Virus record (IMG/VR): IMGVR_UViG_3300027793_000078 | Coordinates: 1 to 64,000 of that record | Source of the DNA: a virus | DNA length: 64,000 nucleotides | Reading direction: 5' to 3' (one strand) | Shown here: positions 40,556 to 42,297 of the stretch, one piece after another | Position numbering within the stretch: the first letter of the stretch is position 1 | How the letters are laid out: the number at the start of each line of letters is the position of its first letter | Notes under the pieces: model-generated | Told to the model about the DNA's origin: nothing | The model's input: the letters and a program-made list of their open reading frames with translations, nothing else | Database searches by the model: none | Translations under genes and position numbers: made by a program

Positions 40556-40594
40556 AATTTTAGAGATACATTCAGCAATACAAATAAATAATAA

Positions 40595-40667
40595 ACAGCT
40601 ATACGTGGTGTTCGAATCCCACCTTGCCCACTAGACGGGCAAGTAGCCGAGCGGTTCAGGCGGCTGT
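40595..40667 (+). tRNA. Circularly permuted tRNA gene (3' half first)
   Basis: The 3' half comes first: ACAGC (anticodon stem, 40595-40599), variable TATAC, T arm with TTCGAAT, CTTGCCC (40623-40629) and A73. After a 6-base linker comes the 5' half: GGGCAAG (40637-40643), TA, D arm GCC/GGC, and GCTGT (40663-40667). Acceptor (7 of 7) and anticodon stem (5 of 5) pair perfectly between the halves. Flanking GAGATAC (40563-40569) and GTATCTC (40679-40685) extend the open anticodon arm. The anticodon cannot be fixed; AAU is one option if 3'-half bases supply the loop. Confidence 0.65.
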
Positions 40668-40698
40668 CAAATAAAAACGTATCTCGTATTTTTACAAT

Positions 40699-40774
40699 GG
40701 TGCGGTGGCAGAAATGGCTATGCAGGAATTTGCAGAATTCCATCATGTAGGTTCAACTCCTACCCGTACCTCCA
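40699..40774 (+). tRNA. tRNA-Cys (anticodon GCA)
   Basis: 76 bases with CCA; anticodon loop TTGCAGA on stem GGAAT/ATTCC, T arm GTAGG-TTCAACT-CCTAC, acceptor GGTGCGG/CCGTACC with a normal G1-C72 pair. Confidence 0.9.
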
Positions 40775-40928
40775 GTTTTAACATTCAGTGACTATAAAAA
40801 AATTGCAGACGCAATGACCAAATAGAGGTTGGTTTTAGGTTTTAGTATGAGAAACGGAGTTTGTTGTAAACGTTTATTTCATATATTTATTCAATCATTC
40901 GTCGTCTATTACCGAATGTTTAATTTTT

Positions 40929-40980
40929 AAGACACTTGCAGCAAACATATTTTTTATTGAAAAAAACCAAACGGTGTCTT
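40929..40980 (+). repeat. CAGCAA hairpin module, empty form
   Basis: AAGACAC (40929-40935) and GTGTCTT (40974-40980) pair; CAGCAA follows the 5' arm after three bases and the interior is A/T-rich. Same plan as the stems that carry the permuted tRNAs at 40563 and 41996, but without a tRNA. Confidence 0.45.
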
Positions 40981-41265
40981 GTTTTTGATTTTAGATTAGA
41001 GTTGGAGTTATCGTAGAAATCTGTGGAAGTTGTAATACACAGAGAGTATATTTAAGGAGCCGCTTGACAAACAGAAGGACAACGAGTATGTTTGTTCTAA
41101 GATAACTACACATCCCCTCGGTCAAAGGATATAATCTAATATGTTGGTTGTTCAACGGCAGTCCGTTATTTAAAAAACATCAATGGATGTGCCCGTGTTA
41201 AAACGGGATGAACGGTGAGAGATAGCAGTCCTACTGAAGGCGAAGACTGTAACAATCAATATTAT

Positions 41266-41317
41266 AGACACACACAGCAACTTTATATTCCAATAGGAAA
41301 CAAAAGAGAACGTGTCT
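41266..41317 (+). repeat. CAGCAA hairpin module, empty form
   Basis: AGACAC (41266-41271) pairs with GTGTCT (41312-41317); CAGCAA follows after three bases. It ends 7 bases before tRNA-Ile. Confidence 0.45.
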
Positions 41318-41324
41318 AGTTCAT

Positions 41325-41418
41325 GGCCTCGTAGTTTAATGGTAGAACGCAACGCTTATAACGTTGATAAGCTCCAGATTAGAGCACGGTCTCGGTTCGA
41401 ATCCGGGCGAGGCTACCA
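41325..41418 (+). tRNA. tRNA-Ile (anticodon UAU) with long variable arm
   Basis: 94 bases with CCA. Acceptor GGCCTCG/CGAGGCT (G1-U72), anticodon stem CAACG/CGTTG with loop CTTATAA, T arm CTCGG-TTCGAAT-CCGGG. The variable region is about 24 bases with hairpin GCTC/GAGC, although Ile tRNAs normally have five. It looks like an insertion of about 19 bases. It would read AUA without needing the CAU/lysidine system. Confidence 0.8.
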
Positions 41419-41723
41419 AATTTTACCGTGTGGTATTTTTGTGATACACGAATAATGGGTAGCATAAAGCAGATATACCACTGAGTGGTTTCAGATGGTA
41501 ATGTATCATACTATGTCCAACGTTCGGTGCTAATTGCGTCTGACCAACATACAATTAGTTGTGGGTTTGATTCCCATCCACGGTACACTTTCAATTCAAT
41601 CTTTGACAACATATCAATGTTGAGACTAGTCATCTTACCAAAACAAAACCAATCATATTTTGTCGGAGTTGTCGTGTTTTTAAAGTTTTGTGAACTGTTC
41701 GACAACAACATTGATACTTTAAT
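41419..41723 (+). ncRNA. Non-coding region with tRNA-like T arm
   Basis: 305 bases. ACCGTG (about 41425) can pair with CACGGT (about 41581); between them lie a D-arm-like hairpin GTAT/ATAC, CTAATTG/CAATTAG and a T-arm-like GTGGG-TTTGATT-CCCAT. The arrangement of acceptor-like stem, T arm and an expanded middle recalls the tRNA-like domain of tmRNA, but no tag-coding frame or CCA was found. The last 130 bases show no structure I can support. Confidence 0.35.
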
Positions 41724-41800
41724 GGCTAGGTAGTCCAACGGCAGGAGACATCCGACTCAAAATCGGTCCAGTGTCGGTTCAAATCCGACCCTAGCTACCA
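41724..41800 (+). tRNA. tRNA-Leu (anticodon CAA), short variable loop
   Basis: 77 bases with CCA. Anticodon loop CTCAAAA on CCGA/TCGG (with a U27-U43 mismatch), T arm GTCGG/CCGAC, acceptor GGCTAGG/CCTAGCT closing with G1-U72. The variable loop is five bases, whereas Leu tRNAs normally have a long arm; identity is from the anticodon only. Confidence 0.8.
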
Positions 41801-42028
41801 ATTTTTAATTCTGTGTATAGATAAACGGTATTGCTATTTGGTAATGACTGACAACAGTATATTATGAGTAAAATCGTAATAATTAGTAATACTAATACCT
41901 ACGGGGATATCAGACTGAACAAACAAATGAGTTTTTGAATTTGGGTTGATATTACAAATCTATTGATTGCGGGTCACAGAAATAAAACTCTTTAAAAGAT
42001 ACATACAGCAACAAATAAAGCAATCCAA
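41801..42028 (+). other. Non-coding spacer before permuted tRNA
   Basis: No ORF on either strand. Contains short repeats of TAGTAATA type and, at 41996-42004, the 5' arm of the stem that encloses the permuted tRNA. Nothing else can be supported. Confidence 0.3.
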
Positions 42029-42116
42029 ACTGCATATACAGCGTGAAAATCCTGTTCCCTCTGCCAATTTTAACAGAGTATTTATAGAGGGATCGTCTAA
42101 CATTTAGGACAGCAGT
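42029..42116 (+). tRNA. Circularly permuted tRNA gene (3' half first, CCA encoded)
   Basis: 3' half: ACTGC (42029-42033), variable ATAT, T arm ACAG...CTGT, TCCCTCT (42056-42062), G73 and CCA (42064-42066), then ATTTT, the sequence that follows ordinary tRNA 3' ends here. A 19-base linker precedes the 5' half: AGAGGGA (42086-42092), TC, D arm GTCT/GGAC, A26, GCAGT (42112-42116). Acceptor 7 of 7 and anticodon stem 5 of 5 pair. AAGATACAT (41996-42004) and ATGTATCTT (42126-42134) form a 9-bp outer stem. TCC would be the anticodon if the loop came from the 3' half alone; the T loop is atypical (TGAAAAT). Confidence 0.65.
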
Positions 42117-42297
42117 ACGCAAAAAATGTATCTTGTTTTTTGAGTATACATGAACAGAATGAAAATTGTATGGCGACGAGTCCTGTAGTCATAAGACAAG
42201 ACGTGAGGACAAAGATATTATCTATAGGTAATATACGAAAAACGTAACGAAGTGTCTTTGTGGGTCAACTAATCCCACTGTATACTCTATATTTTAT
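42117..42297 (+). other. Non-coding spacer after permuted tRNA
   Basis: Contains the 3' arm of the enclosing stem and then short imperfect hairpins. TATACT about 12 bases before the next ATG could be a -10, but no good -35 is present. Confidence 0.3.

What the first reader, a model, noticed from the sequence alone, without database searches (positions are those of the whole stretch)
40563..42134. A hairpin module with CAGCAA, empty or carrying a permuted tRNA
Four elements have a closing stem of the type RGAYAC/GTRTCY with CAGCAA a few bases inside the 5' arm: 40563 and 41996 hold the permuted tRNAs, 40929 and 41266 hold only about 38 bases. A related CACACAGCAAAC lies at about 37691. The permuted tRNAs thus seem grafted, opened at the anticodon loop, onto a repeated RNA module. 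This could be a processing signal, an intron-like element or a new mobile RNA element.
Basis: seen in the sequence. Interest (0 to 1): 0.7.

Follow-up and report, generated by a model that had tools for sequence, protein, structure and literature searches.

The report
Tiny tRNA introns in large phages
The repeated hairpin is real: it belongs to a widespread, apparently undescribed RNA element of large phages that interrupts or scrambles tRNA genes as a very small intron, and that often carries a lone anticodon loop copying the tRNAs that bacteria cut to stop phages.

Summary
Four elements with stem RGAYAC/GTRTCY and CAGCAA lie where stated. A relative (about 77-89% DNA identity) keeps both permuted tRNAs and one "empty" element, with 11 two-sided compensatory changes, 3 broken pairs and 1 one-sided change.

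The frame (P1, N3, CAGCAA, A-rich strand, G after P1') occurs in three forms: (I) ~41-50-nt introns in normal-order tRNA genes, mostly in the anticodon stem; removal restores a tRNA in 43 of 101 candidates; (P) permuted tRNA genes, the same frame opened at its loop; (E) "empty" frames, many holding a solo anticodon stem-loop (109/282 against 12.7 in shuffles). E loops are enriched for Lys UUU, Thr UGU and Asn GUU (43/76 against 234/2191 native tRNAs), the published targets of the anti-phage nuclease AriB.

Best reading: a new mini-intron class plus anticodon-nuclease decoys; the catalyst is unknown. No Rfam family matched and my paper searches found no description; Lak-phage introns already in print look different.

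The parts
40563..40685 (+). Element 1, permuted tRNA in the frame. P1 40563-40569/40679-40685; CAGCAA 40573-40578; 3' half: anticodon-stem 3' strand 40595-40599, T arm 40605-40622, acceptor 3' strand 40623-40629; linker 40630-40636; 5' half: acceptor 5' strand 40637-40643, D arm 40646-40661, anticodon-stem 5' strand 40663-40667; A-rich strand 40668-40678. Amino acid not assignable (Ile/Phe/Tyr by junction).
   Evidence: Coordinates; rotated cloverleaf accepted by ARAGORN; orthologue L003 with 7 two-sided changes, 2 broken pairs, 1 one-sided change
40929..40980 (+). Element 2, 'empty' frame: P1 40929-40935/40974-40980, CAGCAA 40939-40944, inner hairpin 40950-40965
   Evidence: Model R1 31.2 bits, E 4.5e-5; in the relative L003 at 5646 with one substitution
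41265..41318 (+). Element 3, 'empty' frame: P1 41265-41271/41312-41318, CAGCAA 41275-41280, inner hairpin 41288-41299 (not an anticodon loop)
   Evidence: Model R1 26.6 bits, E 6.3e-4; no counterpart seen in L003
41996..42134 (+). Element 4, permuted tRNA, probably Trp (CCA). P1 41996-42004/42126-42134; CAGCAA 42006-42011; UCCAAA 42024-42029; T arm 42038-42055; acceptor 3' strand 42056-42062; GCCA 42063-42066; acceptor 5' strand 42086-42092; D arm 42095-42110; anticodon-stem 5' strand 42112-42116; A-rich strand 42117-42125
   Evidence: Coordinates; orthologue L003 with 4 two-sided changes and 1 broken pair; ARAGORN does not accept it after rotation; Trp identity by inspection and recalled identity rules
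37684..37717 (+). CAGCAA site without a proper closing stem, possibly a decayed relative of the frame
   Evidence: 20.1 bits, E 0.028; conserved in L003
26461..27891 (+). CCA-adding tRNA nucleotidyltransferase, could finish permuted tRNA 1, which encodes no CCA
   Evidence: phrog_2244 E 6.6e-61; role inferred
35352..35855 (+). LigT-like 2'-5' RNA ligase/phosphoesterase near the array; involvement only conceivable
   Evidence: PF13563 E 6.3e-10; 4 of 45 module-bearing records have this family

Best explanation
The module is the core of a new class of very small (about 41-50 nt) tRNA intron of large phages. In normal-order genes it sits mostly inside the anticodon stem (28^29 or 29^30): 5' exon, A-rich strand, P1 hairpin with a GNNA-type loop, N3, CAGCAA, 7-11 nt, 3' exon. 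In the window's two permuted tRNAs the same frame is opened at the P1 loop and the tRNA's own ends are joined by a short linker, so the frame encloses the tRNA. Excision and joining at the anticodon arm would then give a circular pre-tRNA that RNase P and 3' processing (plus the phage CCA-adding enzyme) open into a tRNA (inferred). The 'empty' frames of the family often hold only an anticodon stem-loop, mostly Lys UUU, Thr UGU or Asn GUU; the best explanation for these is decoys for bacterial anticodon nucleases of the PARIS/PrrC kind. Shown: existence, conservation, structure, the three arrangements, the tRNA restored on paper, the anticodon bias. Inferred: that splicing happens, circles, decoy action. 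Unknown: whether the catalyst is the RNA itself or nuclease plus ligase.
For: Scans: more than 120 stretches each for the permuted and the empty pattern. Introns: removing P1-CAGCAA segments restores a tRNA in 43 of 101 candidates, 4 of 101 had one natively; BUCT-ZZ01 has two intron tRNAs that the deposited record leaves unannotated, and Rfam's tRNA model bridges them. Permutation: of 312 long modules 75 give a rotated tRNA with 7/7 acceptor pairs, against 10 of 600 T-arm-anchored controls. Same element: G after P1' in 266/280 E and 154/156 P modules, not used in selection. Solo anticodon loops: 109/282 against shuffle mean 12.7; loop size 7 is the one clearly enriched. Non-circular test: P1 in 57 of 184 sites against 3.9 when arms are re-dealt. 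Decoy: Lys+Thr(UGU)+Asn 43/76 against 234/2191, p 2.6e-21, matching AriB targets. Window orthologues: 11 two-sided compensatory changes, 3 broken pairs, 1 one-sided change.
Against: No RNA data: splicing, circles and decoy action are untested. The window's own empty elements do not hold a recognisable anticodon loop, and the window's permuted tRNAs are divergent (extra T-arm base in element 1; unusual T loop in element 4, which ARAGORN did not accept after rotation). 58 of 101 intron candidates gave no tRNA and 237 of 312 long modules gave no rotated tRNA with a perfect acceptor; many of these are chance pairings. No ligase family is universal: Rnl1 7/45, RtcB 5/45, LigT-type 4/45, RNA_ligase 27/45 over cut-off, and in the tRNA-anchored sample ligase and module are not associated (1 of 5 against 6 of 21). 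A+U-rich phages could favour U-rich anticodon loops, though the same loci's normal tRNAs do not.
Confidence: 0.65

Rival explanations
1. Self-splicing: P1, CAGCAA and the A-rich strand form a ribozyme core that cuts and joins at the anticodon arm by itself.
For: Short conserved core (CAGCAA, A-rich strand, G after P1') in many phages of different habitats; no ligase family shared by all records searched.
Against: No Rfam ribozyme match; about 45 nt is very small for two cuts and a ligation; host enzymes could serve.
Confidence: 0.3
2. Protein route: an endonuclease reads the frame and a phage or host RNA ligase (Rnl2, Rnl1 or RtcB type) seals the junction; a break in the anticodon stem leaves the exons paired, like a nick in duplex RNA.
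For: RNA_ligase (PF09414) over cut-off in 27 of 45 module-bearing records against 7 of 26 in the tRNA-anchored sample; junctions at 29^30; jumbo phages are known to carry these ligases (PMC7824862, passages).
Against: The sets differ in record size; within the tRNA-anchored sample there is no association (1 of 5 against 6 of 21); no endonuclease candidate found.
Confidence: 0.4
3. The frame is not removed but marks degenerate or dead tRNA genes, recombination scars of fast-changing tRNA arrays.
For: tRNA arrays change fast; the window's permuted tRNAs are imperfect.
Against: Compensatory changes between phages, exact restoration of 5-bp stems and 7-nt loops, conserved CAGCAA and G, anticodon bias of solo frames.
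Confidence: 0.08
4. Solo frames are regulatory or mRNA-processing hairpins whose loop resembles an anticodon loop for another reason (for example binding of a tRNA-modifying enzyme or a synthetase).
For: U36-A37 loops (55 of 76) are also what t6A37-forming enzymes see (recalled); not every E frame has such a loop.
Against: The anticodons match the AriB and PrrC targets closely; no enzyme link found.
Confidence: 0.3

Closest known systems
Circularly permuted tRNA genes of red and green algae and Thermofilum (BHB type)
   Same: 3' half encoded before 5' half, flanking sequences pair, a circular pre-tRNA is the natural intermediate (review PMC3978253, passages read; it lists 34 genes from algae and one archaeon, and the word phage does not occur in it)
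   Different: Here in phages; the flanks form a 7-9-bp stem with CAGCAA in a large internal loop, not a bulge-helix-bulge; break points 28^29, 29^30, 32^33 or before the variable arm
tRNA introns of Lak megaphages (PMC6784885, passages read)
   Same: Introns in tRNA genes of very large phages, called enigmatic
   Different: Three interrupted or over-long Lak tRNA genes that I read (Lak-C1 88063-88221 and 89071-89174, Lak-A1 215530-215630) have no CAGCAA frame; Lak genomes do carry solo frames, one with a Lys loop beside a tRNA
Group I introns in bacterial tRNA anticodon loops
   Same: Interrupt a tRNA in the anticodon arm; permuted intron-exon forms make circles (recalled)
   Different: About 41-50 nt, no group I match in Rfam
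Phage tRNAs that counter PARIS/AriB (phage T5; PMC12409363, passages read)
   Same: Phage RNA with Lys UUU, Thr UGU and Asn GUU anticodon arms; overexpressed T5 variants block the defence
   Different: Here only a solo anticodon stem-loop without tRNA body, inside the P1-CAGCAA frame

Membership tests
Circularly permuted tRNA gene | Halves in swapped order that form a cloverleaf with paired acceptor when rotated | tested here: met
   Element 1 and 75 of 312 family modules; element 4 by inspection with compensatory changes, not accepted by ARAGORN
Circularly permuted tRNA gene | Bulge-helix-bulge at the junction, cut by tRNA-splicing endonuclease | tested here: not met
   Folds show one 7-9-bp stem and a large internal loop; endonuclease genes not searched
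Circularly permuted tRNA gene | Circular pre-tRNA intermediate | not testable with these tools
   needs RNA
Group I intron | Conserved group I core (Rfam) | tested here: not met
   No match at gathering score or up to E = 5
Lak-phage tRNA introns | Same intron sequence class | tested here: not met
   No CAGCAA frame in three interrupted or over-long Lak tRNA genes; their supplementary table was not read, so identity with the published introns is inferred
Anticodon-nuclease decoy | Presents the nuclease's target anticodon stem-loop | tested here: met
   For the family: 43/76 solo loops are Lys, Thr UGU or Asn. For the window's own two empty elements: not met
Anticodon-nuclease decoy | Binds or occupies the nuclease | not testable with these tools
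   needs experiment
Known Rfam RNA family | Match at gathering score | tested here: not met
   Only tRNA in the window, none on the four elements
Mobile RNA element | Evidence of movement (target duplication, encoded mobility gene, copies at unrelated sites with empty counterparts) | not tested
   Empty-site comparison was limited to three uninterrupted tRNA homologues at about 80% identity

The most novel reading that the evidence does not exclude
P1-CAGCAA is a new self-splicing ribozyme, the smallest natural intron known, spread through large phages. It lets them encode tRNAs scrambled or interrupted in the anticodon stem, so that no nuclease-sensitive anticodon arm exists until splicing. 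Its solo form releases tiny circular anticodon stem-loops that soak up PARIS- and PrrC-type anticodon nucleases.
Probability: 0.2. Interest if true: 0.97.

Novelty: categorically new. Interest (0 to 1): 0.9.

Why it matters
Permuted tRNA genes were known from algae and one archaeon; here they appear in many phage genomes (first to my knowledge, within the searches named), together with an intron class far smaller than the self-splicing groups I know of. tRNA finders miss these genes, so tRNA counts of large phages are probably too low. Either mechanism would be news: a ~45-nt splicing RNA, or a natural substrate for the RNA ligases so common in large phages. The solo anticodon loops would be a minimal RNA counter-defence against tRNA-cutting immunity, testable with a cultured phage (BUCT-ZZ01).

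Tried and rejected
Megablast of the window's array against 50,697 phage records found nothing. A permuted tRNA from L013 found nothing in cultured phages; the L007 intron tRNA led to BUCT-ZZ01. A first rotation test without an acceptor check gave 148/312 for modules but also 90/312 for T-arm-anchored controls, so I added the acceptor criterion. I first took the window's empty hairpins for anticodon loops; they are not, only many of the relatives' are. The idea that every phage with the frame has an Rnl2-type ligase was not borne out. A PhoH-anchored sample gave too few large contigs. Covariation on alignment A1 is circular because its rows were selected for pairing; one search replaces it. The one genome-contig hit is not next to a tRNA by eye. 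A P2 helix between linker and A-rich strand was seen in some members but not all and is not claimed. Mobile-element reading: nothing found for it.

Full report
Setting. The window is part of a 78,477-base IMG/VR virus record. Between 37.5 and 44.6 kb it holds a tRNA array (10 ARAGORN genes in the whole window; Rfam adds one at 40486). The phage encodes a CCA-adding enzyme (26461-27891), a LigT-like protein (35352-35855) and an ATP-dependent DNA ligase (58911-60062). Distant relatives include very large phages (45% identity over 31% of a 944-aa protein in a 595-kb uncultured phage).

The observation. All four elements exist. Each has a 7-9-bp stem P1, CAGCAA three bases inside its 7-bp core, an A-rich 3' strand and a G after the stem. 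Elements at 40563 and 41996 enclose tRNA halves in swapped order. Folding z-scores are -2.0 and -2.7 for the two permuted elements, 0.1 and -2.1 for the empty ones, so energy alone is weak evidence. The fifth site, at 37691, has no proper stem.

A relative. One contig, IMGVR_UViG_3300032237_001169 (L002/L003), matches much of the window's flanks at about 77-89% DNA identity (weakest stretches 65-75%) and keeps elements 1, 2 and 4 and the 37691 site; I saw no counterpart of element 3. In the two permuted tRNAs, 11 pairs change on both sides and stay paired (acceptor 3 and 2, D 1 and 0, anticodon 1 and 1, T 2 and 1), three pairs break (one in P1 of element 1, one in each anticodon stem) and one anticodon-stem pair changes on one side, G-C to G-U (one extra T-arm base in each tRNA, in element 4 shared by both phages, was left out of the comparison).

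The family. In the 243 loci then held, 1025 sites have a P1 of at least 6 bp exactly 3 nt before CAGCAA (this includes chance pairs and near-identical contigs), with spans clustering near 40 and near 100 nt.

Form I, introns. In L007, L010, L034, L083, L093, L095, L096 and others a normal-order tRNA is interrupted by A-rich strand, P1 hairpin with GNNA-type loop, N3-4, CAGCAA and 7-11 nt. Trying all junctions in a window, ARAGORN accepts a spliced tRNA in 43 of 101 candidates; 4 of 101 overlap a native tRNA, and three of the 43 (L023, L057 1430, L067) are among those. Where the junction is unique it is 29^30 with 5-bp stem, U33 and purine 37 (L114 6956, L153 10958, L244 6120); L240 832 also has a single solution, at a different place; most others are ambiguous between 28^29 and 29^30; L153 11084 lies near 33^34. 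A stricter repeat gave 31 of 143 candidates (more loci), three with an uninterrupted homologue at about 80% identity. Two such genes lie in the cultured Synechococcus phage BUCT-ZZ01, unannotated in its record, with CTGCAA for CAGCAA and introns of 41-42 nt; Rfam's tRNA model bridges both.

Form P, permuted genes. Among 312 distinct long modules, 75 give a rotated tRNA with all 7 acceptor pairs, 98 with at least 6; controls anchored on T arms without CAGCAA gave 10 and 55 of 600. Unrotated, 13 of the 312 contain a tRNA. Without the acceptor criterion: modules 148/312, reverse complements 0/312, block shuffles 0/312, random segments 7/312, T-arm controls 90/312. Some relatives break before the long variable arm (for example L019, L030, L045; read by eye).

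Form E, 'empty' frames. Of 282 distinct short frames (7-bp exact P1), 162 contain a 5-bp hairpin with a 7-nt loop against 55-72 in five shuffles; loops of 4, 5, 6, 8 and 9 are at or near shuffle level (loop 9 is 84 against 59-68). With U33 and purine 37 it is 109 against a mean of 12.7 (maximum 18); CU-NNN-RA loops are 71 against 1.1 (maximum 3). Sites chosen only by CAGCAA and loop sequence, not by pairing, have P1 in 57 of 184 (3.9 when arms are re-dealt, maximum 9) and the loop stem in 64 (4.1, maximum 9); in the second set, whose loci were fetched by a P1 pattern, 52 of 132 (8.1, maximum 16) and 38 (2.2, maximum 7). The G after P1' is present in 266/280 E and 154/156 P frames and was not selected for.

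Anticodon bias. Of 76 solo loops (YU-NNN-RA), 27 are Lys UUU, 8 Thr UGU and 8 Asn GUU; among 2191 distinct native tRNAs of the same loci these three make up 234 (odds ratio 10.9, p 2.6e-21; Lys alone 27/76 against 70/2191). Related phages are not independent; counting distinct stem-anticodon pairs leaves 15, 4 and 6 of 56. These are the main targets of the PARIS nuclease AriB, and T5 variants of these tRNAs block PARIS; PrrC also cuts tRNA-Lys UUU (PMC12409363, passages). The window's own empty elements do not show such a loop, although the model built from 32 solo frames still finds them (31.2 and 26.6 bits); the same model scores the two permuted elements only 15.0 and 13.6 bits (E 0.5 and 1.2), as their insert is not in the model.

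Distribution. In 26 records of at least 60 kb taken from a tRNA-only pattern (120 stretches matched, 80 listed, all listed contigs of that size used), 5 have a model match at E<=0.01, best 3e-13. In 45 records that I picked, nearly all over 100 kb, not all such records, and chosen because they hold modules, 45 match, as expected. Of 84,980 prokaryote species genomes, one had the exact intron core of the single P1 type searched, without a nearby tRNA by eye. Complete Lak-A1 and Lak-C1 genomes carry solo frames, one with a Lys loop, yet the interrupted or over-long Lak tRNA genes I read lack the frame.

Mechanism. That the segment must leave the RNA follows from the exact tRNA restored. A junction in the anticodon stem keeps the exons paired after excision. 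Ligase families in the 45 records: Rnl1 7, RtcB 5, LigT-type 4, RNA_ligase 27 over cut-off and 34 at E<=0.001 (some weak ones may be DNA ligases). In the tRNA-anchored sample RNA_ligase is in 7 of 26: 1 of 5 with the frame, 6 of 21 without. So no universal ligase is shown, and I leave open RNA catalysis against nuclease plus ligase. Jumbo phages are known to carry these ligases for tRNA repair (PMC7824862, passages).

Novelty. No Rfam family matches the frame. Ten paper searches (listings and abstract beginnings seen, passages of six papers read) gave no description of permuted phage tRNAs or of this frame; the library holds open-licence PMC papers only, so print elsewhere is possible. Phage tRNA introns as such were reported for Lak phages (PMC6784885, passages). 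Rnl2 substrate preference, tRNA identity rules and the size of group I introns are recalled.

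Noticed in passing
window 41325-41418: tRNA-Ile(TAT) with an unusually long variable region (94 nt); not explained.
   Followed up: no
window 38336-38803; L003 about 6157-6650: HNH endonuclease ORF inside the tRNA array; the relative has a different ORF, HNH-like by eye, just before permuted element 4.
   Followed up: no
window 53618-57832: Tellurite-resistance-type cluster (TerC, TelA, TerD, TerF-like domains) in the phage.
   Followed up: no
window 35352-35855: LigT-like 2'-5' RNA ligase/phosphoesterase close to the tRNA array, 92% identical in the relative.
   Followed up: partly
L018, L019, L038, L045, L046: Permuted class II tRNAs whose anticodon loops have odd residues at positions 37-38, possibly not for ordinary decoding.
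   Followed up: partly
L010 about 2099-2190 (minus strand), L123 about 2605-2700 (minus strand): Long frames with P1 AGGATGA/TCATCCT enclosing a conserved tRNA-like sequence (GGCCGTCCAATAGGGGAC...GGTTCGATTCCCGG) that is not simply permuted.
   Followed up: no
L034, L037, L099, L114: A second repeated motif, GATGATTCAGCAATT...AATCATC (CAGCAA in a shifted frame), next to intron tRNAs.
   Followed up: no
L432, record positions 88063-88221 (Lak-C1): A Lak tRNA intron without the CAGCAA frame that itself contains a tRNA-like 3' part; absent from the Lak-A1 copy.
   Followed up: partly
window 1393-1466 (minus strand): CAGCAA site with 20.1 bits to the solo-frame model (E 0.027) far from the tRNA array.
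   Followed up: no
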